Source: Pleodorina starrii (Eukaryota > Chlorophyta > Chlorophyceae > Chlamydomonadales > Volvocaceae). From it: a stretch of 64,000 nucleotides of DNA. The DNA lies in assembly GCA_030267565.1 (NCBI GenBank), contig BRXU01000016.1:1630501-1694500 (forward strand). Reading direction: 5' to 3'. Positions 19,200 to 64,000 of the stretch are shown here, one piece after another. The translations under genes and the position numbers were made by a program. Position 1 is the stretch's first letter, and every line of letters starts with the position of its first letter. The notes beneath the pieces are model-generated. The model had not been told where the DNA came from, made no database searches, and saw only the letters and a list, made by a program, of their open reading frames with translations.

Positions 19200-21043
19200 T
19201 TTCAGCATTACGATTCGGCCTCTCGCCCTGTTGAAGAGGGGTTTGCTGAAGAGGAGTGTGAGGGGCGGGGTGAAGAGGGTTGGGTTTCAGCTGGGAGGGA
19301 GGGAGGGAGCAGTCCGAGCCCTGCCGCTCCAGTCCGAGCCCTGCCGAGTCTTCGGCGGTGGCGGTGGCGGTGCTGCTGCTGCTGCTGCTGCGCACGAGTA
19401 GGTTGGCACTCCCTTTTACATGTACGGTACCTTCACTTGTTGTCAGTCAAACGCCCCTTGTCAAATGTCCTGAAAACAAACAGAAACGCAGTGAGGAAAT
19501 GCGCTGCAAAAGCTTGTCTGCGTGGTGATGTGGCCGGTGCTGTCTCTGCCCCTGGGCGCGGCGGCGAGGGGCGCAGAGGGTGGTGGGGTAGCGCACCGGC
19601 GTGCTGTAGTGCCCGACGGGGCGCGGGGGGGAGCCCTCCGGGTTGTCTTGAAGGTAGGAAGCTAGAAACGTGTCTTGCTCCCGGAGGAGTCATGTGCTGT
19701 GTGTGAGTGTGTGTGTGTATAAGAGGGGTGGCCAGCGCCGGCGACGATCCCCTCCCGGTGCTCCTCAATTGTGGGTGTCGCCGGCGGGCGCGTAGCCGAG
19801 GGACAGCTCGCGGGGGGTGCGAGGCTGCCGTTGCAGCGACTTTTGAGCTTTGGGAGCCTCGGTGGGGTGGGCTGATGGACAAACGGTGGGGTGCGAGGAA
19901 TGGACAAACGGGGCGGGGCAAGGCTGCATTGAGCTGGGTGGGCGGTGAGCGGAGGGGAGTGAAAAGCTAGGTAGGGAAAAGCCGATGTGGACGCCTCGGT
20001 TCGACACCGCAAGGGAGAGGGCCGGGCCGGGCCGGGGGTTTTTAGGGTTTTAGGGTCAGTTGGGAGAGTGTGGGGGCGGGGGCGACCGGGCCAGGTCTGG
20101 TCCTGTGAAATTTGGCGAGTATGGAACAACACCGTGCCTTGTGTGTTGTGTATGTGTGTGGGGGGTGTGGGGCTGCATTGTGTTGCATCCAACAACAGTT
20201 CATAGGGTTGGGTGGGTTGGGTGGGCTTTGGGGGACGGGGAACAACACTGTGCGTTGCGTGCCCGCGTCTGGCTGGCTAACTGGCTGGCTGGCTGGGTGT
20301 GTTGCGGTGAAGAGGGGGGGGAGGGGCTGCCCGCCGATAAGGTGCTCGCGCAGCACCTAGGGAGGCTCCGAATCCTGCCTGATGTGTACGACCGGGGTGC
20401 CTAGCGCCTCGTAATTTATTAGCGTGTATCGGTACCAGGTAGTAGGGTTGGCCTTTCGTGTTCCAGGCCAATGCCCCCTAACCACTCGCAGACCAATGCA
20501 CCAATCGCCAACGGCCAACTGGCACATTTTGCAGCTGCTTCCAGTATTCCCTCGCCCCCCGACCACGCAGCCGACCAATCGCCAGTAGACACGAAGGTAA
20601 CGAAATTGCGAGGACCCGAATCCGCGCCGCCCGCAGCCGACCCTTGGCCACGGGCCACGGGCTCCTTCCCAGTCCTGTCCATCGGTGTCGCCATCTCGCC
20701 AGGACCTCTCCGACTGCAGAAGCCTTCACACGCACCTCCGAGAAGCCCGCCGTGGCAACCCCCACCGTCCCCAATCGCCCCCAATCGCCGGCTTTCTCTC
20801 TCTTCCTGGCAGCTCGCGGTCTTACGTGCAGGCTGCCCGCACCGCCCCCCGGCCGTCGTTGCAACCATCGGCCAATCCTCACCCTCCCCCATCAAAACCC
20901 TGAACAGCAGACGCCGGCGGCCTCCCACCCCCCCTCTTCGCGCCCTCTTCCCTCTCCGCCCGCCGTTCGCAGCAAGTTGCGCAACCAAACCCAACCGAGA
21001 ACCAGCCCAACCCCCCCCCTCAGCCACCGCGCATTATACAAAA

Positions 21044-49655: not shown

Positions 49656-52600
49656 TCAGAGGCCGTTGAGAGACTGCACCGCGCGGTCATGCATCGGCAG
49701 CACCACCACCACCTCGTCAATCAGGCCAGTCCCCGCACGGACCTGCTCCGCCTTTCCGCAGCCGCCGCCGCCAAGGCCACCACCACCACCGCCAGCAGCA
49801 GCAGCAGCAGCAGGCGGCTCGTCGTGCGGGGTCGCGCCGGCCGGGCCGCCGCTGACGCGTGTCGCCGCCGCAAACGCCGCCAGCGCCAGGCGCCGCAGCT
49901 GTACGGAAATGACGGGCTGGCCCTCCGACAGTCCTTTCAGGCGGAAAAGCCCCAGATCGTGCACCTGTACGACATCCGGTACGGCGTGAATCGATGCCGC
50001 CAGGCCGCGCCCGCCGGCGCTCGCCAGGCCAGCCCACATGTCCAGAGGCCAGCCCGCCGCCGCCGCCGCCGCCGCCGCCCGGGGAGGCGACAACGCGGCA
50101 GGGGAGCCCAGCGGCGGCGGCAGCGGCGGCAGGACTGGAGGTGCCAGCGGCAGCGGCGCCGCCGCCGCCCTGAGCGCCGTCAGCATGGGCCCAAGCGACG
50201 GTGAGGTTCTGCACACGAGGGTGGGCTGCTCCATGCCCGTCGATGAGCCCTCCACCATCCCGGTCCCCGTCTCGGGCCGCATCCCGGAGCCAGTGCCCGT
50301 CGGCGCAGCCCACTCGGGCCCCGGTCCCGGTCCCGGTCCCGGGCTGTGCAAGACGGTGTCAATGGCGCAGCCGCCGGTGGCGGCGGCGGCGGCGGCGGCG
50401 GCGCTGCCGCCGCCAGCCACAGCCCAGATCGCTTGCTCGTCCATGCTGTCCGACGTCAGGGCCGCAACACACTCCTCCAGCGGCGACAGAGGCCGCGCTG
50501 ACGGAGCACACGCCGCGGGCTTGTGAGACGCCGGCGGCGGCGGCGGCGGCGGTGCTGGCGGCTCCGCTTGTCCCTCCGCGGCTGCCGCGGGCCCTCCGCC
50601 GGGCGGCTCCCCTCCAGCCGCCGCCGCCACGACGCCACTGCTGCGCCGGGTGTCATGGCCGCCGCCGCCGCTGCCGCCGCCGCCCGGCGGCGTCGCCGGC
50701 TGCCTGTCGTACGGCTGCTGCTGATGATGATGAGAATGAGACGGCGGCAGCAGCAGCGGTGGCGGCGGCGGCGGCGGAGGTAAGTTGCCGATCGAGGCGA
50801 CGATTCGGGGCGGCGGTGGCGGCGGCAGCACCGCCGCAACCGCCGCCATCGCCGCGGGCCACGGCGGGTCACTGGCTCGGCTGATCAAAGGAGGTCTCGG
50901 CGGCGGCGGGGGCGGACCTCCGGGTCGGCCGGCGGCGACGGCGGGGGCTGGCGGCGGCGACGGCAGCGCCGTAAGCAGCGACAGCGGCGGAGGCTGCGCG
51001 CCACCGCCGCCGCCGCAATGGACGGTGTTATTGCTGCTGTCGCCGCCGTTGGGCGGCACGATCTGCAGCTGCGGAGAGGAACGCAGTCGCCCGGTCACTG
51101 TGACCAACGCCGGCACAGCAGCAGCAGCCGTCGCCGCCGCCGCCGCCGGAAAGCCCACACTCGTGGCGGCGACGGTGCCTGCTGCTGCTGCTGGGGCGGC
51201 GGCGGCGGCTGCCGCTGCTGGGGCTGGGGCCATCAGCGCGGGACTCAGGCCCGGGGAGGCCGAGGCCGTGTCGCTGGTTTCCGTGTGCCGCAGCGGAATG
51301 TTGGGCCGGGGGTATCCGGGGCCGTCTGCAGGCAGGGGGCAGGGGGCAGCGGCAGCGGCAGCAGCGGCAAGCAGAAATGGCGCCATCAGCGGCAGCCCAA
51401 GGCAACAACAGCTGGCGCCGCGATGACGGTCGCGGTCGGAACAGGTACCAGCGGTTTCGGAGCGGGATACCGCTGGTGGGTGGGTGGGTGGGTGGGTGGG
51501 TGGGTGGGTGGGTGGGTGGGGTACCGTAGTTGCCCAACCCCCTCCAGATGGACTCAGCCTCGGATGCCGTGGCCGCCCCCCCGCCCCTCCCCCACCCACG
51601 AAGACGAACATGAGCCCCCTCTGGGTGGGTGGGTGGGTGGGTGGGGTGGCAGCCCCCGCCCATACACACCCACCCGCCCCTGCGGCCCCCTGCCCATCCA
51701 CCCCCCAACCCCCCCGACCCTCCACGCCCTCTCTCTCGCCACCCACGCCCCCGTAAGCTCGCTTCCGTGCAATCGCGCACATCTACCTCCCACAGCCCTC
51801 CCCTCCGCCCCCCCTCAACCCCCTTCCCCCACGCACCCGCGCGCCAGGGCGAGCCTGGCAGTGCCGATGAGGACTTGGACTTGGAGGCAGCCCCCGCCCC
51901 CGCCCCCGCCAGCTGGCGCCACTCCTTGAGCACCTCGAGGCCGGCGGGCTTGTCCAGGAGCGTCTTTGCGGGAGGAGGTGGGGAGGAGGGCGGGGGGGCG
52001 GGGGGGCAGGGGATGAGGGGAGGGAAAGCGAGCGAGGTGAGGCGAGGGGAGTGCGCCGCAGTGCGGTGCGGTGTGATGCGGTGCGCCGGCGACGGTGGCC
52101 GCATCCTGGCAAGGCCTCATGCAACCGCGCATGAGCCGCCCACGAGCCAGGCGGAGCAGCCCCCCCCCTTCCCTCCTTCCCTCACATTCCCCAGCCCCGC
52201 CGCTTGGCCTTCTCCCCGGTCCTCCCTCCCTCCCTCCAGCCCCCACCGGCCCCTCCAACCCGCAACGCCAACCACCAACCAAAGGACGACTCACGAGAAG
52301 CCCCCCCTCCCTGCCGTAGACGAGACGGCCTTCTTTCGTTACTTTTACCGTTCACGGGCTCCGGCCTATACGTGGATAACCCCCTCCCCCCCGCCCCCCA
52401 TTCACTCTCTCACCTGTCCCGCCTTTGCCCCCGCCATGAGTCTGGCCGCTCGGTTGACCAGCGCGCCAAAGTAGTCGGCCCGTCCCGTGGTGGCGTGTGG
52501 CACCACAGACAGCGGCACTCCGGTGAAGATGCCCACCTTGGCGCGGAAGCCCCTGAGGGAGAGGGAGGAGGGACAGCGACAGGGAGCGGGACAGGGCGGG

Positions 52601-55365
52601 GGAGGGGAGCGGTGACGAGGCAGGGCGGGGCGGGATGGCGGGTGAGGGGCCGGGTGAGGGGCCGGGAGGGGGAGGGAGGCTTTGGAGGGGGGCTGCAGGC
52701 CGGGGGGCATCCGATGAAGCCACCATCCAGCCCCCCTCCACCCCTCTTCCAACCCACCCCCCGCACCCCCCGCACCCCACCCCAACCAAACACCACACCC
52801 CGCCGTTTGGGCCTGCTTTTCTATACCCCTCCCCGCCCGAGCCCCCCCCCACCACCACCCCCACCTACCCGCCGTTTCATACTCATTACCCAACCCAACC
52901 CAACCCAGACCCATCACCCACGCTCCAAATCGCCCTCTAAACCGCCCCCGTGTCGCCCCCCAAACAGCCCCCCCCCCAGGCCCCCCCCCACCTGAGCAGC
53001 GGCCGCCCGTCCTCCGCCAGCAGCTGTCTGCCCTCCGGCCTCTCCTCCAACAAATCAGTCGGCCAGTCCGCGTGCAGCAGCCACTCGTGCAGCGCCAGAC
53101 CCGCCTCCGCAGCGACCCGTGGGCCACTGACCGCCACCATGAACGTACATTCGTACTCCTGGCACTCGTACAGGCCGTACACCTGCAGTATCTCTCGTAC
53201 GGCAGCGCAGAAGACGGCGCCGCTGCGCTCCGCCACCGCGGGGCTGGCGTTGGATACGGCCGAGTAGCCGGCGGGTTGGATGAACATGAGGGACAGGCGC
53301 GGGAAGGAGGGCGCCTGGCGGGGCGCGCAGGGCAGCAGGGCCTGTGGGAGGGAGGGAAGGGAGCGAAGGGAGGGAGGGAGGGAGGAAGGTGGAGAGGGTT
53401 TTAGCAAGCAGTCCAAAAGAACAGGTGGGGATGGGGGCTGGTGATGAGCACGAAACCGCAGTGATGGGGAGGGGGGTAATTAGAATGGCCCGGGGCGAGG
53501 GAATGCAACGCAGTTACCTGGGGGGCAGGTGGGCGAGGGGGTAGGGGGAGGGGGGGGTCGCACTGCCACTCTCACTGTCACCCTGGGTTTGGGCTGCTGC
53601 CCTGACGAGACCCACAATCCTCCGCTCCGCCACCCGCTGACCCTGCCCCACAAACCCACAACCCCACATTCCCCGCAAACACAAACCCTAAACCCCTAAA
53701 ACAAACCTAAACCCCTGCACCCTCCCCACCCCTACCCCTTACCCCTTCTCCCACCTGCGCTGCCCCCGGCGCGTCAAAGAAGCCGGGTGAGATCTGCGCC
53801 TGCGACTTGAGTGGCGGGTGGCAGGCGGCCCGGTGCTTCAGATGCGCGGGAACGATCTGGATCACCTGCGAGGGGGCGGGGAGGGGGGGGGGCGGAGGGA
53901 GGTTAATCAACGTATAGGCCGGAGCCCGTGAACGGTAACGTATCAGAAGAAGGGGGGGAGCCGCGGTGGAGGAGGACGGGGGAGAGAGGCGCGGGCGGGG
54001 GCGGGGGCAGCGGCCCGGTCTGTCCGCATCCGCGCAGACCCCGTCAGAACCGGACCCGCCACAACCCGACCAGAAACAACTTCCGCGGGTCCAGCCTTGC
54101 GTGCCGTACCTGCACCCCGTCGTACAGATCTCCGTACGCGGGTCCCAGGGCGGAGATCTTGAGCCGGTGAACACCCATATCGATGACCATCAGGGAGTGG
54201 CTGGCGCCGCCGCGACCACCCGCCGCCGCGACGGAGTCGGCGGCGGCGGCGGCGGAGCCGCCGCCGCCGCCGCGGCCACCTTCATCCGCCGTGGAGGAGG
54301 GCGTGGCGGCGGCGGCACCGCCGCCGCCGCGGGCGCCGCCGCCGCCGGCGGCGGTGGGGGCGCCGGCCCCTCCCTCCTTGGGGGCACCGGCGACGGACGC
54401 CAGCGGCCCACCCCGGAATCGCAGTCTGGAGAGGCTGCGTACGGACATGTCGGCGGCGGCGGCGATGGCGGCGGCGGCGGCGGAGGAAGGCAGGCGCGCG
54501 GCGCGGCGCGCGGAGACGCTGCGGAGGGGGGGGGGCAAAGCAAGGGGGAGGGGGAGGGGGCCGGACCCGGGCCGATGGGTGGGAAGCCGGGCGCAGGGCG
54601 CAGGGCTTCACAAGACACGACCGTTCTTCCCCCTTCCCCCTCCCTCCCCCGCAAACACGCCATTGGGACAGTGCACCCGGCCCTCCCTCCCTCCCACCCG
54701 CCCACCCTCCCGCCCCTATCGCTCCCTCCCACCCTCCCTCCTCCCTCTCCCTCGGCGAGTGCGACCCCACCCAGCCTCTACCACCCTCCCTCCCCCGCCG
54801 CGCTCTCGCAATCCCGCACCCCTTGATGAAGGCCCGCTTGGTCCCCCGCGTTGAATCCGCGCGCGACGCGACAGACGCGCCGCGCGGCGTCTCCGCGCCC
54901 GACCCCGCCGCCGTCACCGCCGCCGCCGGCGGCGTGACAGAAACCGCCACGGTGCCGCCACAATCTGCATCGGGAGCCGCCGCTGCCGTTGTCGTCGTCG
55001 CCGCCGCCGGTTCAGATTCCGATGCCGCCGCCGGCGGCGGCGGCGGCGGCTCCGCTGCCGTCGCGGCCGCCGCCGTCGCGGCCGCCGGCATCGGGGCGGT
55101 GGCGGCGGCGGCGGAGCCGGCGTCGACGCCACCACTGCCTCCCCCGGCGGCGGCGGCGGCGCCGCCGCCGCGACTGGCGGCGGCGCGGCTCTCCGCTCCG
55201 TCGCCCCGCTCCGACGTGCCCCGGATGATGCGGCGGCTGCGACCCAAAAGCTCCAGGCCTTGTCGTACACTGGAGGAAGGCAACCGGTGCAGCAGATCTA
55301 CCAGGAGGCCCCGCTGGGTGCCGCTGCCGCCGCCGCCGGCACTGCGGGGGGAGCTGGTGCGGGCC

Positions 55366-55411
<46 letters not shown>

Positions 55412-58353
55412 GGAGCTGCTGAGTGGAGGATCGGGACTGGGAGCGCGGGGAGGAGCCGGCGTGTGTGTTTGTGTCGGTGCGCTGAAGGGGGGAGGCGGAG
55501 GGTGTGGGGGTGCTGGCTCGCCGGTCGGCGACGGAGAGGGGGCTGCCGCTGCCACCGCCGCCGCCGCTGCCGCCGCTGCCGCCGCCACCGCCGCCGTCGC
55601 CGTCATCCCACTCGACGCCGTGCGCCTGTTTGAATACGGAGGGGGCGGGCAGGGGCGGGCAGGGGCGGGCAGGGGCGGGTAAGAAAGGAGGCTGCTGTTC
55701 CCGCAGCGAAGGAACGGAGGCAGTGCGTTAGCGAGGAGCGGATCCCCGGGTTGGGAGAAAGACGGGCAGTCTCCGGATTGCGAAGAGACGAAAAAGGAGG
55801 CGGCCGACTTTGATGAAAGACACCGGGGGTTGCGGACGGATGGCTGGCTGGTTGGCTGGGCGGCTGGCTGGCTGGCTGGGTGGGCGCGCAAGCGGGCGGG
55901 TGAGCATGGTGAGGGCGTGAGTGGCGCACTATCCCCCTCGCGGCTTCCCCATCCCGCCTCCATTTCCCCTTCCAGCCCCCCCCACCCCACCCCCAGCCCA
56001 CCCCCTTTCACGCTTCCCCCTCCCTCCCCCGCCCCAGAGCCCACATTCGAAAGGTCCATCGCCTCCTTCGCCGCTCGGTTCGCGTGAGAGCCCATCGCCT
56101 GCAGTCCCATTGTGGAGCGGAGAGCCAGCAGCCGGGGCCCGACACTGGCGCCGGAGGAAGCCCCGGCGGCGGCGGCGGCGGTGGCGGGGGTGCCCCCGAA
56201 GCCGGCGGCGCCGCCGGCGGCGGCGGCCGCCGCCGCCAGCAACGCCGCCACCGTGGCTGCGTCGCCGACGGACATGCAGCCAATGGAGGCGTTTGCGTTG
56301 GTGGCGTCCAGGTGGAATCGCATGGAGGGGCGGGTGAAGGGGAGGTGCGGGAGGGCGGCGCGGGAGCGGTCGTGCATGTCCAGTCCTGCGTTGCGGTGGG
56401 GTGGGGGGCGGGGGACGGGGGGCGGGAGAGAGGAAGAATGGAGGATGTGTGTGTGTGGGGGGGGGGCGGGGGAAGGGGCGGGCGCGGAGTGAGAGGGGAG
56501 TGTGGAGAAATATAGATACACACATGCACACACATGTACAGACATGCGCACATGTTTTACCTCATACACACGCACACCCCAAAATGCCGTACCTCCCAGG
56601 CCGTCCTGCTCGCCGTACATGTCCGACACCTCCGGCTCGCTGCGCCGCCAGCCCGATTCCAAGCTGCCCGCCAGTCGAGGGTCCAGAGACGACCCCAAAG
56701 CACCCGCCGCCGCCGCGAGCCCCTCAGAGGTGGCGGCGGCGGCGGCGCCGCCGCCGCCGAGCCCATAGCCGTACACGCCACGGTACAGGTCTACCTCCGC
56801 CGAGCTGCCGGCTGCTGCTGCAGCGGCGGCGGCAGCGCCGCCGCCGTACCCCGGCTGCGGCGGCTCCGCCGCGGCGCCGGACGCCGTCGCCATGCCAAGC
56901 GACGTCAGCGCCGCAGCGAGGACGTGGGGCGGCGGCGGCGCCGGCAGCTGGTAATGGTTCGAGTGTTGCTGGTAGTGGGGGAGGTGCGGGTGGGTCTGCT
57001 GGTGTTGCTGCTGCTGGTGGTGATGGTGATGGTGGTATTGGTACTGGTGTTGGTGCTGATGAGGGTGGGGCCGCTGGCGGTCCACCCCTCCTGTGGTGGA
57101 GCGAACCCACTGCAGAGAAGCGGTGGTGAGCGCCGCCGCAGCGGTGGCGGCGGCGGCGGCGCCGCCAGCCCAGCCCGCCGCCGCATCTCCGCCGCCGCCG
57201 CCGCCGCTGCCGTCGGGGTGCGTCACTGAGCCGGTGCTGGGGTTCGACATGAACGCGGTGACGTGGACCGGATGTACGACAGTCAACGGCGGGCTGGAGG
57301 CTTCCGCGCCGACGGCGGCGGCGGTCAGCAAGAGCTCGTCCTCCCGCTGCCCGCGCGCCGCCGCGGGTACGGCAGTCGTACCCTCCGGCCACGTGGGTGG
57401 CAGGGGGAGGTGGCCGCCGGAGTGCGCGGCCGCCGGCCGCGTCGCGCTGTACGGCACGGGCTGCTGCTGCTGCTGCTGTGGTTGTTGTTGTGGCATGGGA
57501 GAAGGCGGCGATCGCGGCCGAAGCGGCGGTTGCTGCTGTTGGTGCGGGTTGTGTAAGTACGTAGGTGTAGGTGGGTGTAGGTTGCCCGCCCGGAGTGATC
57601 CCGACCTCTTGGCCAACAGGAGGGCGTCGCTGCCGCCGCCGCAGCGCCCGCCGCCGGCGCTGCCGCCGGTGCTGCTTCCGCCGGCCTCCGCGGCGCTGCC
57701 AAACGCGCCGGCCGCCGCCGCCGCCGCCGCCGCCGCCATCGCCGCCGCCGCCGTGCCGGCTAGCGGCGACGGCGGCGACCCCACAACCTCCCCCGGCGGA
57801 CGGCTCGCCGTCGACATGCTCGCGAGGCGATGGAGCGGCGGGTTGTGGTGAATGTTATGGTGGCTAAGGTGGGCGTGGTGGTGGTGCTGCGGTTGCTGCG
57901 ATTGCTGCGACGTAAGGAGCCCGCCGCTGCCGCCGCCGCCGCCGCCGCCACCGGCGGCGCCGCCGGGGCCAGGGCCGAGGCCGTTGCAGGCCGCCGCGGG
58001 CACTTGCGGGGCGCGCAGCGAAGGCGCGGCCCCCGCCAGGACTTCCAGCTGGAAGACGGCAGCGGCGGCGGCTGTGGCGGCAGGCGCAAAGGCGGAGGTG
58101 GTTTCGGAGCCCGCCCCCGCCGCCGCCGCCGCCGGAGGCGGCGGCGGCGGCAGCAACGGCGGCGGCGCGGGGTCCGGCGGCAATCGCCTCGGCGAGCCAC
58201 CGCCATCACCCTTCCAAGGGCTGCCGCGTTCCTCACCCTCCCACTGCCCGTCGCCGTCGCCGTCGCCGTCGCCCTCAGTGGCCTCCGCCACGGGCCCGGG
58301 GGGCAGACGCAGCATGTGGCTCGGCGCAGCGCCGCTGTCGCCGCCGCCATGGG

Positions 58354-58384
<31 letters not shown>

Positions 58385-58888
58385 CATCGCCGCCGCCGCC
58401 GTCGCGGCGGAGGCCGGCAGGCCGGATGACGCCGGCAGCAGCACCAGCAGGTTTTGGTTGCTGGCCTGACGGGGCCCCAAGGACTGGCCCGGCGGCGCCG
58501 CTGCGGCCTGGCCGAACATCAGCGCGTTGGCGGCGGTGCCGGCGGCGGTGACGGTGGAGGCGCTGGCGAGAAGGTCTGCAGGGGCCAAAGTGGTTGTGGT
58601 GGTTGTAGTGGTTGGGATGGTTGTGATGGCGGTAATGGTGGTTGTGGTGGTTGTGATTGTGGTTGTGTGGCTGTGTGGCCCAGTCCTAGCCCCAGCCCCA
58701 TCACGGCACTCGCACATCAAGCCTTCCTGCCGCCACCCGCTCATCCGCCCCCACACCAAACCCCATCAGCCGCCCTGCACCCACCCCCGGATGCCAGCAG
58801 GTGGCGGTATGTGCTGCTGAGGCTGGGAGGGGACCCCGGAACCGCCACCGGCTCCAGCTGCAAAGGTGCGACCCCCGCAGGATGCCGA

Positions 58889-58922
<34 letters not shown>

Positions 58923-61900
58923 AGTGGTGGTGGTGGTGATGGTGGTGGTGATGGTGATGTTGGGGGAGGGGGTGATGCGATACGGTCTGGCCGGCCGGCG
59001 GCCCGCCTCCGCCGCCGGAGGCGCCTGAGACACCGGAGGTGCCGTCGCCGTTGCCCCTGAAGAGCGAGTGGAAGGAAAAGGTCTCGTTCGCGTGCGCCGC
59101 CGCCACGCGCGCAATTGCGGCCGCCGCCGCCGCCGCCGTCCCTGCTGAAGCGGCAGCCGCGGCTGGCGAACCCGGCTGCCCCTGCACCGACTGGCCCGAA
59201 CGCAGCACAGCTTCCAGCTGAAGCCCGCCGCCGCCGCCGCCGCTGCAGCCGCTGCCGCCACCCTGCGACGACAGGCCGCCGGACCGCAGGGCGGCCTCCG
59301 ACGGCAGCGGCGTCAGCCGTCGGGTCAGGTGCCCCGACGGCGGGCTGCGCTCCAGGGCGGGCGTCTGACCCGCCGCGACCGAGCCGCCGGCGATGAGGAG
59401 CCCCGTCGGCAGCGCCTGGCTGTACGACGCGCCGTGCACCGACGCGCCTGAGAACGCGGCTCCGGAGCATGAGCCTGCCGCCGCCGCCTCCCAGGCGCTT
59501 CGGGAGATCAAGGCCAGGCCCGCGGGTTGCGGCATCGGCCCGCTGACGCGGCCGCCGGCGGCGGCGCCCGGGAACGCGGGGCGAGAGCTCAGGCCCGCCA
59601 GCGGCGGCGGCGGCGGCGCGTGGGCAAAGTTCGTGGTTGAGACCTGCTTTGACGGCGGGGCGCTATGGAAGCTGTCTCGCTGCATCAGCAGCGCCGCCGA
59701 CTGGCCGCGGCGGACGTTGCCGTAGCGGCGCGGCGGCCGGGCGGCGGCGGCGGCGGCGGCGGCAGCCGCCGCCGCAGCCGCCAGCCCCGCCCCCGGCGGC
59801 GCCGTCGCCGGCTTCGGCAGCTTGTCGCTGGTAAAGTGATCGGTGGGGGGCGGCGGCGGCGCGCCGTCGGTACTCCTGAGGGTTACGAGCCGTGCCGGCC
59901 GGGCGGAGGGCGCGGGGTGTACCGGCTGTAGCACCTGTAGCGGCGGCTGTAGCTGCTGCTGTAGCACCTGTAGCGGGACCGGCAGCGGCAGCGGCTGCGA
60001 GAAGTCGAGCTGCGGCTGGGTGGGCGGCGGCGGCGGCGGCAGCGGCGGGGACGAGGGCGGGCCGACGGCGGTGGCGGACGACGCGGAGGCGAGTACGGGA
60101 GGTGGTGGGGTGTCGTACGGTTGTACGGCCGAGAAACTCTCTTCCTCCAGGTACTGCAGTCGCAGGAGGTCTGGAGAAAGGGGCGCGGGCGCGGACGTGA
60201 CGGCGCGAGGGGAAGCGGGGGAAGCGAGGGTACCGGTAGATGGGATGGGGGGGTGGGGGTGCTTCTCAGGGCAGCGGGGAGGAGTGAAGTGAGACAAGAG
60301 TAGTAGGAGAGCGACAAGGCTCGCGGGGGATGCACCCGCACGCGCACACACACACACGCCCATGCCCACGCCCACGCCGCCCATCCGCGCCGCTCCCTCC
60401 CTCCCCATCTCCTCCGCTCCCTCCCCTCCCCTCCCTCCCTTGTCCCTACCCGCCAGCTCCTGCACCTCGCTCTCCTCCACATCCAGCTCCTCAAACTTGT
60501 TGTGGATGCCCTTGAACGTCACCGGCTCCAACAACACCTGCCCGCCGCTGCCCAGCTCCGCGATACCCGTCGCCAGCCGCAGTACGGCACCCGTGTACTG
60601 CACGCGCCGCGTCACCGGGTGCTCCCGTACCGCCGACGGCACCCCCGTCGCGATGCCCATGCGCACCGACAGCCCCTTGAACAGCACCAGCAGCGACGCC
60701 GCCTCGGCGTCGCCGCCGCCGCCGCCGCCAGGCGCCGCCGCCGCCGCGATGGGCACCAGCGGTCTGGGCCTGCACAGCGGGTGCTCCAGCAGCAGTGGCG
60801 GCCAGTCCAGTTTGAGCAGTGCGGACTGCAGCAGCAGAGACCAGCGGACGGCGTCCACCGGGTCGTGGAAGGCCACCAGGAAGGCGTCGCCCTCGGTCGT
60901 GACCTGGACGACCCACGGATCGGTGGGTTTTAGGGTTTCAGCGTTTTTAGGGTTTTGGGTTTAGGGTGACCTGAACGACAGTCGTTGGTTGGTTTCGCCA
61001 CTGGTGTGGGTTTGGTTAACGGCGATTGGCTGATGGGCGTTGGGTGATTAGGCGGGTTGTGCGGGTTCGGTATATTGGGCGGGTTGGGTGGGGGTGGGGT
61101 TGCGCGGCCTGCTCGCCCCACGGCGTATGGCGGGGCCCTGGCGCGGCGAGAGCAGGGAGGACGGCGGGAGCCGTCGTGTGCGCGTGGGCGTGTGCGGCTA
61201 GACGCGTGGCAGGTGCAGAGAGCGCAGGTGCATGTTCACGGGGCGGCGAACGCGGCAGTCGCGGGCCGCGGAGGGTGGCGGCGCCATGGGGCCGCTTGCA
61301 CCGCGAGTGACAGCCAGCTGGGACAGCCGAATCAATCTTTAGTTCCCTATATGGGGGCTGACAGCCGCAGCGACGACCAATGCAGCCGCAGACGCAGACG
61401 CCTCAGCGATGGCTGCGGCAGAAGCCGCAGAAGCCGCAGCCGCATGGCCCCCTGCCCCGAGCCCCGCACCTCGTATCCGCAGCAGGCGGCCAGCGTCAGT
61501 CGCATCAGGCGGTCGTGCAGCGCCAGGGCGGCGTTCATGACGTCCGGCTGCCACTCCCACAGCTCGGTGCTGCCCTCCACATCTGCCGCCGCGTCGAGCG
61601 CGGAGGGGAGGAAAAGGAAAAGGAAAAGGTGCGGGTGAAGATGGGCGACACCGGGGGTGGAACCCGGGGGCGAGGGGACGGGGCGGGACGGGACGGACGC
61701 GGGGGAGAGGGCGGGGGCAGAGGGGCCGAAGGGAGGAGGTCAGAAGTCAGAAGTCGGCGGCGGCGGCGGCGGCGGCGCACGGGCGGCGCGGCACATGGCT
61801 GGTGGACTGGGGCGGGGGCGGGACGGGACTCGCCAGCCACTCTCCTCTCCTCTCCGCCCGCCTGACCGCGCACCGGACTGCCTCGATGCTCCAATGCTGC

Positions 61901-64000
61901 TGCGCCACTACTGCTACTACTGCTGCTGCTGCTGCTACTAATACTGGGGTTCCGTGCTTCTCCTTGCCTTTCCTTGCCTGCCACTGAGATGTCCCGCCCC
62001 GCCCTCCCTCGCCCGCACAACCCCACTCCCCCCCCACCACCTACCCACCCCCGCCTACCTGTCGCCACGAGCGTCACCTCGGGTCCAAACAGCTCCGGTG
62101 CCAAGCCTGCGGGGTCGGGGCCGGGTCCAGGTGTGCGGGCGGGCCGGCGGGCGTGGAGGGAGAAATACGGACCGCAGTCATGGAAGCGAGGCGACGGAGG
62201 CTGGATTTGAACGGCCCCGCAGGCACCCGGCTGGCCAGACCCCGCTGCGTTCACAGCCTCCGCCCCGCCCCCCATTTCCCGCCCTTGAATGCACGCACGT
62301 ACGTGCAGCCCCCGCCCCGTCCCGCCCCGCTCGGCCGATCATACAGCCATACCGCCAGGGCGCGTCTGCACGGGCTTACGGAGGACCGCGCCCCTGGCCG
62401 AGCGACGCAGCCCCGTTGCAGCGCCAGCCACGCAAGGGCACATGCGTACCTGCACACACGCGCGCACGCACGCACGGGCCTTTGACCCACGCACCCCACC
62501 CCCACGCCCACGGGAGCGCACGCCGTCTCCGTCCCTTCGCTGCGGTAAATACATTTTTTACACCACGCCCCCGGCCCCAGCAGGCCTCACCCGGTGGCCT
62601 CGCGCGCTTCGCCTCAAACAGGTTGCCCCCCGGCGGCGCGTTCTTCCGCGACCCCGCCCCCACCCCCGCCAGCGCCGACAGATCTTCCGACATCCGGAAG
62701 TTGCGTCCGGGCGGCGCGCCGCAGGCGCTGTGCGGCCGCCCAGCAGCGGCGGCGCCGCCGCTGCCGCCGCCGCCACCGACGCCGCCGCTGGCGGTGTGGC
62801 GACTGCGTTCCTCCCACTGCAGCGAGTGCTGGCTGCCGCCGCCGCCGCCGTCCCGGAACCAGTCCCGCAGTACGGACCGCCAGCCCGCCGCCGCCGCCGA
62901 GGTGGCGGCGCCGCCGCCGCTGGACGTGCACCAGTGGTGGTTGTGGTGGCGGTAGTGGTAGGAGTGGCGGGACGAGTCCTCGGCGCCGCTGCGTGACTTG
63001 GTTGCCGCCGCCGCCGCCGCGGCGGCGGCGGCAGCGGCGCGGCGGCGGCGCAGCTCCCTGCGCATGCAGCATGTGGCAATGGCCAATGAGGAGAGCAGCG
63101 CGCCGGCTGCGGCGACGCCGATGACGATGCCGGCCAAGGCGCCCGCGGAGAGGGAGACCTGCGGGCGCAGACCCGTGGGTCCATGGGTGCAGACCCGTGG
63201 GTCAGAAGATGCAGACCCGTGGGTCCAAGGATGGGTGGATGGGCGCGACGGCGCCGGCGGGCAGGCGGGGCGGGGCGTATCCTAGGAAAGTACAGTACTA
63301 CGAGGACTTGGGCGGCGCTGGTTCGCTGGAAGATGGTGGGCTGGCTGGACGGGTCATAGGCTCATCTCATAGCCCCCCCGGTGAGAGTGGAGGTTTCGAA
63401 CCCAGGGACAGGAACCACAAGACGAAGAACGACGGCGGCGGCGGCGACAGAGGCGACGAAGGCGGCGAACGGTGGGGTGCGCGCCCCACCACCGCAACCG
63501 CAGCCGCCAACCTCCACCCGACGCGCCGAACCCCCACCAGCCACCACAGACGCCCCTGTCCCACCCCACCCCACCCCACCCCAGACCCCACCTCGCTGCG
63601 TCGTGCGTCGGCAGCTGTCGCCTCCGCCTCCGCCGCCGCCACCGCACTCGCCGCTGCACAGGTCGCCAGGATACGTGGCGCACTGCCAGCGGCGGCGGCG
63701 GCGAGCGTCAGCGCCGGCGGCCCCGTCGCCGCCGGCTCGCCGCTGGGCAGCCGCAGGCAGACGCAGTCCTGGAAGCGCCAAAAGGCCGGGTCGGCGAGCA
63801 CGACGGCGGCGCCCGGCGGCGCAAGCTGTACGAGCGCCGCCGAGTACGGCAACACTTCCGCCTGTAAGGCGTCGGCGGCGCCGGTGTCGGCGAGGAAGGG
63901 AACGCTGGCGGCGGCGGCGGTGATGGTGTTGTTGGCGGTGCCGCTGAGGTCCGCGGAGCGGTACAGCAGCGCGGGGCAGGAGTACAGTGCCCCTGCCGGC
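49656..64000 (-). CDS. receptor-type class III nucleotide cyclase with two cyclase domains (5' end beyond window)
   Basis: Makes a cyclic nucleotide from ATP or GTP at a membrane. Exons (minus): >64000-63592, 63158-62591, 62106-62059, 61582-61470, 60903-60450, 60170-58785, 58575-56593, 56385-56045, 55625-54820, 54518-54110, 53865-53755, 53341-52992, 52552-52414, 51963-51837, 51472-49656; all phases agree, over 3,000 residues in the window. Order: end of an extracellular domain (with FQDCVCLRLPSG), one membrane segment (AGALAGIVIGVAAAGALLS) followed by a basic stretch, cyclase domain C1, a linker of about 1,600 residues rich in Ala, Gly, Gln, His and Pro, the C1 tail, then cyclase domain C2 with a further insertion and tail. 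C1 keeps the metal Asp residues and C2 the Asn/Arg pair. The N-terminal ligand-binding part is outside. Whether it makes cAMP or cGMP cannot be told. Confidence 0.88.
51475..51522. repeat. GTGG/CCAC microsatellite abutting the last acceptor of the cyclase gene
   Basis: The plus strand reads GGTGGGTGGG repeats; on the sense strand CCCACCCACC runs directly into the CCACCAG acceptor of the last exon. A second short run lies at 51625-51644 in the same intron. Confidence 0.9.
51837..53341 (-). other. cyclase domain C2 (Asn/Arg half of the predicted active site)
   Basis: Encoded by exons 53341-52992, 52552-52414 and 51963-51837. LSLMFIQPAGYSAVS and YECQEYECTFMVAV align with the two metal-site motifs of C1 but have Gln and Cys in place of the Asp residues. 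VGIFTGVPLSVV and GRADYFGALVNRAARLM keep the Asp of the base-binding pair and the Asn and Arg of the transition-state pair. The closing strand (HDLGLFRLKGL) lies near 49940, after an insertion of about 500 residues. Confidence 0.85.
52331..52380 (+). repeat. dispersed intronic repeat, copy B
   Basis: Contains TTACCGTTCACGGGCTCCGG followed by CCTATACGTGGATA. It aligns over about 50 bp with the inverted copy at 53902-53950 and over about 25 bp with 28797-28823. It lies in an intron of the cyclase gene. Confidence 0.8.
53685..53716. repeat. telomere-like sequence in a cyclase intron
   Basis: AAACCCTAAACCCCTAAAAC followed by AAACCTAAACCCCT: degenerate CCCTAAA/CCCCTAAAA units next to the acceptor region of the intron. 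Confidence 0.7.
53902..53950 (-). repeat. dispersed intronic repeat, copy C (inverted)
   Basis: Read on the minus strand: GATACGTTACCGTTCACGGG, then CTCCGGCCTATACGTTGATTAA. It matches copy B with small differences and lies in opposite orientation in a neighbouring intron of the cyclase gene. Confidence 0.8.
55697..55752 (+). repeat. possible diverged GATACCGCAGC-family copy in a cyclase intron
   Basis: CCCGCAGCGAAGGAACGGAGGC and GCGTTAGCGAGGAGCGGATCC resemble the copy at 32174. Similarity is limited and hand-aligned. Confidence 0.4.
60450..62106 (-). other. cyclase domain C1 (metal-binding half of the predicted active site)
   Basis: Encoded by exons 62106-62059, 61582-61470 and 60903-60450. 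It carries VTLVATDVEGSTELWEW (first metal Asp), YEVTTEGDAFLVAF (second metal Asp), VRMGIATGVPSAV and YTGAVLRLATGIAELGSGGQ. In the last motif, where active class III domains have VNxAxR, Arg and Gly replace the Asn and Arg. The domain is interrupted after HNKFEELDVEE; its final strand (MVIDMGVHRLK) follows only at 54202-54110. Confidence 0.85.
60928..60967 (+). repeat. telomere-like repeat in a cyclase intron
   Basis: GGTTTTAGGGTTTCAGCG, then TTTTTAGGGTTTTGGGTTTAGGG: four degenerate TTTTAGGG units just beyond the exon starting at 60903, on the intron side of its acceptor. Confidence 0.75.
63168..63222. repeat. three GCAGACCCGTGGGTC units in a cyclase intron
   Basis: The 15-bp unit containing GACCCGTGGGTC occurs three times with 8-10 bp spacers, immediately upstream (sense strand) of the exon encoding the membrane segment. 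Confidence 0.85.

What the first reader, a model, noticed from the sequence alone, without database searches (positions are those of the whole stretch)
51837..62106. Two cyclase domains with complementary, individually incomplete active sites in one chain
Hand alignment of the two domains within this protein shows a clean split. C1 has both metal-binding Asp (TDVEGST and EGDAF) but has Arg and Gly where the transition-state Asn and Arg should be (GAVLRLATG), and Gln at the base-binding Asp position. C2 has Gln and Cys at the metal positions (FIQPAGYS, EYECTF) but keeps Asp, Asn and Arg (ADYFGALVNRAAR). In mammalian membrane adenylyl cyclases the same division of labour between C1 and C2 forms one active and one vestigial site. 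Finding it in a single-span receptor cyclase of an alga implies intramolecular pairing of two adjacent domains, which could be convergent. Whether this is already described for volvocine cyclases I cannot tell.
Basis: partly seen in the sequence, partly recalled or inferred. Interest (0 to 1): 0.82.

Follow-up and report, generated by a model that had tools for sequence, protein, structure and literature searches.

The report
Algal receptor with split cyclase pair
A green-alga cell-surface receptor carries two cyclic-nucleotide-making domains that are each missing half of the catalytic residues and together make up one set; the same split is conserved in many algal relatives, so it is an old design like the one in animal adenylyl cyclases but apparently evolved separately.

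Summary
In the spliced minus-strand gene, C1 keeps both metal Asp and has Gln/Arg/Gly at the base-Asp/Asn/Arg positions; C2 has Gln/Cys at the metal positions and keeps Asp/Asn/Arg. The gene is longer than stated: ectodomain reaching beyond the window, one hydrophobic span (by eye), C1 split by a giant low-complexity insert, C2, and a C2 tail near 49.9 kb. Orthologues from Chlamydomonas reinhardtii to Gonium, Astrephomene and Volvox show the same split. Among 62 tandem relatives with all positions resolved (window included), C1 has both Asp in 62, C2 has no metal Asp in 61, and all four conditions hold in 49; none is reversed. The composite site is conserved, the other site mostly free to vary; in 11 of 62 C2 has lost Asn and/or Arg. 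A tree rejects shared C1/C2 ancestry with mammalian membrane cyclases; sAC was not tested. Pairing, cis or trans, activity and substrate are unknown; two AlphaFold2 models did not dock C1 on C2. I class it as a new variant of a known kind: a pseudoheterodimeric class III cyclase on a single-span receptor.

The parts
63745..63999 (-). Membrane-proximal part of the ectodomain (PAGALYSCPALLYR...FWRFQDCVCLR); the ectodomain continues beyond the window to about 66.85 kb
   Evidence: tblastn of V. africanus P0123/P0124 and, in part, C. reinhardtii P0125
63072..63152 (-). Single transmembrane span (LSAGALAGIVIGVAAAGALLSSLAIAT)
   Evidence: read by eye from the open frame; no TM predictor was run
62059..62106 (-). 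C1 exon 1, ends in the first base of the first metal-Asp codon
   Evidence: GT/AG borders and frame
61470..61582 (-). C1 exon 2: (T)DVEGST, first metal Asp
60451..60903 (-). C1 exon 3: TTEGDAF (second metal Asp; Thr at Lys position) and VQYTGAVLRLATG (Gln/Arg/Gly for Asp/Asn/Arg); low end approximate
54203..60450 (-). Giant low-complexity insert between C1 core and C1 tail (exons and introns; borders not determined)
56048..56137 (-). Conserved island in the insert (GPRLLALRSTMGLQAMGSHANRAAKE...), 83% to C. reinhardtii over 30 residues
54110..54202 (-). C1 tail, exon A (SHSLMVIDMGVHRLKISALGPAYGDLYDGVQ); high end from the similarity only
   Evidence: 97% to V. africanus P0124; donor site; in AF2 models of relatives the counterpart lies within the range matched by C1
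53755..53865 (-). C1 tail, exon B / C1-C2 linker (VIQIVPAHLKHR...SPGFFDAPGAAQ)
52992..53341 (-). C2 exon 1: FIQPAGYS and YECQEYECTF (Gln and Cys at the metal positions, Gln at Lys)
52414..52552 (-). C2 exon 2: ADYFGALVNRAAR (Asp, Asn, Arg kept); 100% to V. africanus P0123/P0124 over 48 residues
51910..51963 (-). C2 exon 3 (TLLDKPAGLEVLKEWRQL...), low end not determined
49899..50036 (-).
   Evidence: 72% to P0124, E 1.7e-14
49659..49748 (-). Conserved C-terminal end
   Evidence: 73% to P0123, E 1.5e-8; not matched by P0124 or P0125

Best explanation
A single-span receptor of a volvocine alga whose cytoplasmic side holds a tandem class III cyclase pair working as a pseudoheterodimer. C1 brings the two metal-binding Asp, C2 brings the base-pocket Asp (with Gln in place of Lys) and the transition-state Asn and Arg, so a C1-C2 interface yields one catalytic site and one dead site. 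Shown here: the residues, their conservation with most of the other site free to vary, purifying selection, the width of the family, and separate ancestry from mammalian membrane cyclases. Inferred: that C1 and C2 pair within one chain, that the site is active, that the ectodomain gates it, and that the dead site may serve as a regulatory pocket, as in the animal enzymes. Substrate (ATP or GTP) is open.
For: Residue alignments to GRESAG4.1/4.3 and exon joins. Orthologues and paralogues: C1 residues agree in 10 of 10 copies where C1 is visible (window, two own paralogues, P0001 without its first Asp position, P0004, P0121-P0125); C2 has Gln at the first metal position and QDNR in 11 of 11 copies where C2 is visible (window, two own paralogues, P0001-P0003, P0121-P0125), with Cys at the second metal position in 10 and Asn in 1. 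Family: of 62 tandem proteins with all 12 positions resolved (window included), C1 has both Asp in 62, C2 has neither in 61, C1 has neither Asn nor Arg in 60, C2 has both in 51, all four in 49, reversed in 0. Composite-site string DD+QDNR in 44 of 62, while the other site has 44 different strings in 62; thinned to 60% identity: DD+QDNR in 21 of 33, other site 33 strings in 33, all four conditions in 25 of 33. Column entropy (33 representatives): C1 Asp positions 0 and 0; C1 Lys, base-Asp and Asn positions 2.74, 2.55, 3.36 against a C1 mean of 1.88; C2 first metal position 3.34, C2 base-Asp, Asn, Arg 1.22, 1.03, 0.78 against a C2 mean of 2.10. C1 and C2 largely fall apart in a tree built without the key columns. 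Transcript-derived open frames in the family hold both domains in one chain (P0055, P0061, P0064). dN/dS.
Against: No expression, activity or complex data exist here. Two AlphaFold2 models of whole relatives fold both domains well but do not place them as in AC9 or AC5 (318-339 residues aligned at rmsd 15.3-17.1 A by VIA-align) or sAC (23-24 A by Foldseek, second model); the alignments were shallow (38 and 56 rows). In 11 of 62 relatives C2 has lost Asn and/or Arg although C1 keeps both Asp, and P0031, left out of the 62, has no C2 Asn either, so a catalytic reading does not fit all relatives. Not every position of the 'other' site is free: the C2 second metal position is Gly in 58 of 62 and the C1 Arg position is Ala in 42 of 62, entropies 0.78 and 1.59. 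The base Lys is Gln in C2. V. reticuliferus and Gonium gene models (P0002-P0004) hold only one of the two domains, while the V. carteri, V. africanus, Astrephomene and C. reinhardtii models hold both; these are gene predictions as far as I can tell.
Confidence: 0.72

Rival explanations
1. The pairing is in trans: two receptor chains come together and C1 of each pairs with C2 of the other, giving two composite sites per dimer. The complementary losses then also stop C1-C1 and C2-C2 homodimers from being active.
For: Single-span receptor cyclases of trypanosomes act through dimerisation of their catalytic domains (PMC6027212, passages). AF2 models without in-chain docking do not favour cis, though they do not show trans either.
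Against: The stretch between the C1 tail and C2 is short and conserved in the orthologues that show it (SPGFFDAP...), which would suit in-chain pairing; sAC and membrane cyclases with C1 and C2 in one chain pair intramolecularly (PMC9452739, passages).
Confidence: 0.25
2. The pair is a pseudoenzyme: a folded, non-catalytic scaffold or nucleotide sensor.
For: The base Lys is lost from both domains; 11 of 62 relatives lack Asn and/or Arg of C2.
Against: The two Asp of C1 do not vary in 62 of 62 and the C2 Asn and Arg are kept in 51 of 62 while most of the other site drifts: a scaffold has no reason to keep exactly one composite site.
Confidence: 0.15
3. The split descends from the same C1/C2 duplication as mammalian membrane adenylyl cyclases, so it is not convergent.
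For: Same orientation of the losses.
Against: AC5 C1 and AC2/AC5 C2 form one group (support 100/100); holding algal C1 with AC5 C1, or algal C2 with AC2/AC5 C2, is rejected (p-AU 4.4e-5 and 7.8e-5). 35 rows, 155 columns; sAC and protist membrane guanylyl cyclases not included.
Confidence: 0.05
4. C1 and C2 are in separate genes or alternative transcripts and were read as one chain.
For: Gene models P0002-P0004 hold one domain each.
Against: Colinear hits of single V. africanus and C. reinhardtii models over the locus; transcript-derived relatives with both domains (P0055, P0061, P0064).
Confidence: 0.08

Closest known systems
Trypanosoma brucei receptor-type adenylyl cyclases GRESAG4.1/4.3 (1fx2, 1fx4)
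   Different: One complete catalytic domain per chain that dimerises (PMC6027212, passages); here two domains per chain, each incomplete.
Mammalian membrane adenylyl cyclases (AC2, AC5, AC9)
   Same: Each catalytic domain lacks residues that the other supplies; one active and one non-functional site (PMC2576301, passages); C1 keeps the metal Asp, C2 keeps Asn/Arg (read by eye from the letters).
   Different: Two six-helix membrane halves instead of one span; separate ancestry of the C1/C2 split; both mammalian domains keep a Lys and an Asp at the base positions (by eye), here Thr/Gln in C1 and Gln/Asp in C2.
Soluble adenylyl cyclase sAC (ADCY10)
   Same: C1 and C2 in one chain, one catalytic and one degenerate site that binds the activator bicarbonate (PMC9452739, passages); Foldseek aligns 604-653 columns of the second model with sAC entries, presumably both domains.
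   Different: No receptor part; domain placement in the algal model does not match (rmsd 23-24 A); residue-level comparison not run.
Protist 12-span guanylyl cyclases with two cyclase domains (Dictyostelium GCA, Plasmodium, Paramecium, Tetrahymena)
   Same: Two cyclase domains in one chain (PMC1435932, passage).
   Different: Membrane topology; not compared by sequence here.

Membership tests
Class III nucleotide cyclases (PF00211) | C1 matches the family over its cut-off | tested here: met
   31.6 bits against 21.9
Class III nucleotide cyclases (PF00211) | C2 matches the family | tested here: inconclusive
   21.3 bits against a cut-off of 21.9 for C2 without its tail; but E 8e-10 to 1fx2, and C2 of relatives has the class III fold
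Homodimeric class III cyclases | Each domain holds a complete set of metal Asp, base residues, Asn and Arg | tested here: not met
   C1 DD/TQRG, C2 QC/QDNR
Pseudoheterodimeric class III cyclases (by mechanism) | Two homologous domains with complementary losses, one composite site | tested here: met
Pseudoheterodimeric class III cyclases (by mechanism) | C1-C2 pairing in a head-to-tail dimer | tested here: inconclusive
   AF2 single-chain models of two relatives did not dock the domains
Pseudoheterodimeric class III cyclases (by mechanism) | Cyclase activity of the pair | not testable with these tools
   needs a bench assay
Mammalian-type membrane adenylyl cyclases | Two six-helix membrane halves | tested here: inconclusive
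   one hydrophobic span seen by eye and low-complexity sequence between C1 and C2; no TM predictor was run
Mammalian-type membrane adenylyl cyclases | C1 and C2 descend from the same C1/C2 duplication | tested here: not met
   p-AU 4.4e-5 and 7.8e-5
Trypanosome receptor-type adenylyl cyclases | One catalytic domain with complete residues | tested here: not met
   1fx4 row DD/KDNR against DD/TQRG and QC/QDNR
Soluble adenylyl cyclase (sAC) | C1 and C2 share ancestry with sAC C1 and C2 | not tested
   sAC letters were not used
Leucine-rich-repeat receptors (ectodomain) | LRR or LRR N-terminal cap over the Pfam cut-off | tested here: inconclusive
   LRRNT_2 15.5 bits (P0125) and 10.5 bits (P0124) against 20.7, orthologues only; no LRR in P0124/P0125 at E 0.01, LRR over cut-off in the more distant relative P0012
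Algal tandem cyclase family as defined in this report | C1 with both Asp, C2 without metal Asp and with QDNR, C1 tail VIDMG.H, linker SPGFFDAP | tested here: met

The most novel reading that the evidence does not exclude
A separate origin of single-chain pseudoheterodimeric cyclases, spread through green algae and some other protists and mounted on single-span receptors (some relatives with leucine-rich repeats), with an altered base pocket (Gln/Asp) and a free second pocket that could take a regulator: a receptor cyclase that would not need receptor dimerisation to be active.
Probability: 0.35. Interest if true: 0.68.

Novelty: new variant of a known kind. Interest (0 to 1): 0.52.

Why it matters
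[quoted passage not shown] open-licence papers only). If right, these algae reached by themselves the arrangement of the animal membrane cyclases: give up one of two sites. That offers an independent replicate for asking why the second site is given up and whether it becomes a regulatory pocket. It would also put a cyclase behind cell-surface receptors of chlorophyte algae, in a gene that can be knocked out in Chlamydomonas (Cre10.g451250).

Tried and rejected
Shifted-residue explanation: rejected by the alignments to 1fx2/1fx4. Recent decay of one gene: rejected by conservation in orthologues and paralogues and by dN/dS. Common C1/C2 ancestry with mammalian membrane cyclases: rejected at 155 columns; sAC and protist 12-span guanylyl cyclases were not put in that tree. 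AF2 docking as a test of pairing led nowhere. Leucine-rich ectodomain: Pfam support in orthologues stays below the cut-off. Rows left out of the counts: of 122 rows (the 120 listed of 254 relatives found, the window pair, 1fx4), 76 had two domains, 40 one, 6 more; 14 of the 76 had unresolved positions and were dropped, leaving 62. Of those 14, 12 fit at the positions visible (in P0039, P0041 and P0063 C2 Asn/Arg are not visible), P0077 has Asn at the C1 Asn position, and P0090 lacks C2 Asn/Arg. Of the 6 'more' rows, P0031 is a two-domain protein with two stray short hits, and its C2 has Arg but no Asn. P0121-P0127 were tabulated apart. All relatives were collected by likeness to this window's pair, so the counts describe that family, not all algal cyclases; the 62 hold near-copies, hence the thinned count of 33. 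Literature: searched an open-licence library; I saw no paper on tandem receptor cyclases of green algae, which is no proof that none exists. One search (Gln in a base pocket) gave 0 papers, so nothing found here bears on the substrate.

Full report
What was claimed.

The window lies in a 136-Mb genome of 95 contigs whose closest named relatives for this gene are volvocine algae. Exons with GT/AG borders join in frame. Against the trypanosome enzymes, C1 (E 1.3e-21 to 1fx4) keeps both metal Asp and has Thr for Lys, Gln for the base Asp, Arg for Asn and Gly for Arg. C2 (E 8e-10 to 1fx2) has Gln and Cys for the metal Asp, Gln for Lys, and keeps Asp, Asn and Arg. Pfam Guanylate_cyc scores 31.6 bits for C1 (cut-off 21.9) and 21.3 for C2 without its tail.

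Extent and anatomy. V. africanus models P0123 and P0124 hit the locus in order from 66854, beyond the window, down to 49659 and 49899; C. reinhardtii P0125 does so from 63819 to 49899, with one extra cross-hit of its C2 on C1. Order: an ectodomain (a signal peptide may be seen, by eye; the orthologues' N-termini resemble the cap of leucine-rich-repeat receptors, but LRRNT_2 scores only 15.5 and 10.5 bits against 20.7, and no LRR is found in P0124/P0125 at E 0.01, whereas the more distant Volvox relative P0012 has LRRs); one hydrophobic span at 63072-63152 (by eye); the C1 core in three exons; a giant low-complexity insert; a C1 tail (VIDMGVHRLK...); a conserved linker (SPGFFDAPGAAQ); C2 in three exons; and a C2 tail near 49.9-50.04 kb. 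In AF2 models of relatives single cyclase domains match from C1 across to the counterpart of the tail (about 316-756 in P0007, 399-698 in P0015; first and last aligned residues), with much of the stretch between at pLDDT under 50 (516-701 in P0007; 594-645 in P0015), so the insert seems to interrupt C1.

Orthologues and selection. V. carteri VOLCADRAFT_100489 (P0001), V. reticuliferus P0002/P0003, Gonium P0004, V. africanus P0121/P0123/P0124, Astrephomene P0122 and C. reinhardtii CHLRE_10g451250v5 (P0125), and two paralogues on contig C8 of the own genome. C1 residues agree in 10 of 10 visible copies (first Asp not covered in P0001); C2 has Gln at the first metal position and QDNR in 11 of 11, with Cys at the second metal position in 10 and Asn in C. 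reinhardtii. Against the two paralogues dN/dS is 0.28 and 0.32 for C1 exon 3 and 0.20 and 0.20 for C2 (Nei-Gojobori, dS 0.25-0.49 for the two long exons; 90-137 codons for these).

The family. Of 254 relatives the 120 listed were examined, with the window and 1fx4. 76 of 122 rows have two domains; 62 of these, the window among them, have all 12 positions resolved. C1 has both Asp in 62 of 62; C2 has neither in 61; C1 has neither Asn nor Arg in 60; C2 has both in 51; all four in 49; the reverse arrangement in 0. 34 of 40 single-domain rows (fungal cyclases and 1fx4 among them) have the full DDKDNR set. The composite site reads DD+QDNR in 44 of 62, while the other site shows 44 different strings; after thinning to 60% identity, 21 of 33 and 33 different strings in 33, with all four conditions in 25 of 33. 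That asymmetry is what one functional and one released site predict. It is not complete: at the released site the C2 second metal position is Gly in 58 of 62 and the C1 Arg position Ala in 42 of 62, so those two are conserved in their changed state; this window's Cys there is the only Cys among the 62. Also against a uniform catalytic reading: 11 of 62 lack Asn and/or Arg of C2. Named relatives include Trebouxia, Tetradesmus, Myrmecia, Raphidocelis, Symbiochloris, Scenedesmus, Apatococcus, Pedinophyceae, Volvox, Gonium, Chlamydomonas, the dinoflagellate Effrenium voratum, Capsaspora, and models labelled Mesvir1 and Ulvmu1 (taken as Mesostigma and Ulva).

Origin. In a quick tree of 137 domains without the six key columns, C1-type and C2-type rows need 3 and 4 label changes against about 44 and 46 in shuffles (starred branches force 2 each); 51 of 134 inner branches are open, and Capsaspora's two domains group with each other. 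With AC5 C1 and AC2/AC5 C2 added (35 rows, 155 columns) the three mammalian domains group together (100/100), algal C1 (91/85) and C2 (100/100) are separate groups, and uniting C1 with C1 or C2 with C2 is rejected (p-AU 4.4e-5 and 7.8e-5). So the split appears older than the algal lineages sampled and separate from that of the mammalian membrane enzymes. sAC was not in the tree.

How it most likely works. By analogy with mammalian cyclases, where each domain lacks residues supplied by the other (PMC2576301, passages), and with sAC, where C1 and C2 of one chain form a catalytic site and a degenerate site that binds bicarbonate (PMC9452739, passages), the C1-C2 interface should make one site. 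Trypanosome receptor cyclases instead need two catalytic domains of two chains to come together (PMC6027212, passages). A tandem pair would free the receptor from that need, or, if pairing is in trans, would enforce C1-C2 contacts between two chains. Gln/Asp in the C2 base pocket is usual in this family (46 of 62) and its substrate is unknown.

What is known. Tandem cyclase domains are described for membrane adenylyl cyclases, sAC and 12-span protist guanylyl cyclases (PMC9552081, abstract and passages; PMC9452739, passages; PMC1435932, passages). I saw no paper on single-span tandem receptor cyclases of algae. The identifier Cre10.g451250 was found in one held paper, as an entry in a table of genes differentially expressed in sak1 (PMC4067076, passages), annotated there as cyclase plus 3-5 exonuclease; a 3'-5' exonuclease-like frame also lies upstream of this gene here (L022, 21.3 bits, below the cut-off of 23.6), so that annotation may be a fusion of neighbours. 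That Cre10.g451250 and CHLRE_10g451250v5 are the same gene I take from the names.

Verdict. Real, conserved, and mechanistically telling, but a variant of a known arrangement rather than a new one. Interest 0.52; the bolder reading (separate origin of a split cyclase on a single-span receptor, with a free regulatory pocket) 0.35 likely, worth 0.68 if true.

Noticed in passing
window 56048-56137 (minus strand): A conserved island (GPRLLALRS.M.LQA.GS.ANRAAKE) inside the otherwise poorly conserved insert, found in V. africanus P0123/P0124 and C. reinhardtii P0125; possible docking or helix motif.
   Followed up: partly
window 52348-52373 (+) and 53910-53935 (-): A 26-base sequence occurs twice in opposite orientation in two introns of this gene (0 expected in shuffles); perhaps ends of small mobile elements.
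   Followed up: no
window 60928-60955 and 20040-20050: TTTTAGGGTTT repeats (telomere-like, recalled) in the intron before C1 exon 3 and once elsewhere in the window.
   Followed up: no
G000 contig C8 1151879-1165536 and 1182448-1195491 (L024-L028, L036-L040): Two neighbouring paralogues of the gene with the same residue split.
   Followed up: partly
proteins P0073-P0075, P0080, P0083, P0126, P0127: Proteins with three cyclase-like domains in a row: first with both Asp, middle degenerate, last with Lys or Gln plus Asp-Asn-Arg.
   Followed up: no
proteins P0036-P0038, P0030: Tandem relatives in which C1 keeps both Asp but C2 has lost base-Asp, Asn and Arg: possible pseudoenzymes or partners of another chain.
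   Followed up: no
L022:145-1185 (upstream of the window): 3'-5' exonuclease-like frame (below the Pfam cut-off) upstream of the cyclase gene; a published table annotates C. reinhardtii Cre10.g451250 as cyclase and 3-5 exonuclease together, suggesting conserved neighbours.
   Followed up: partly
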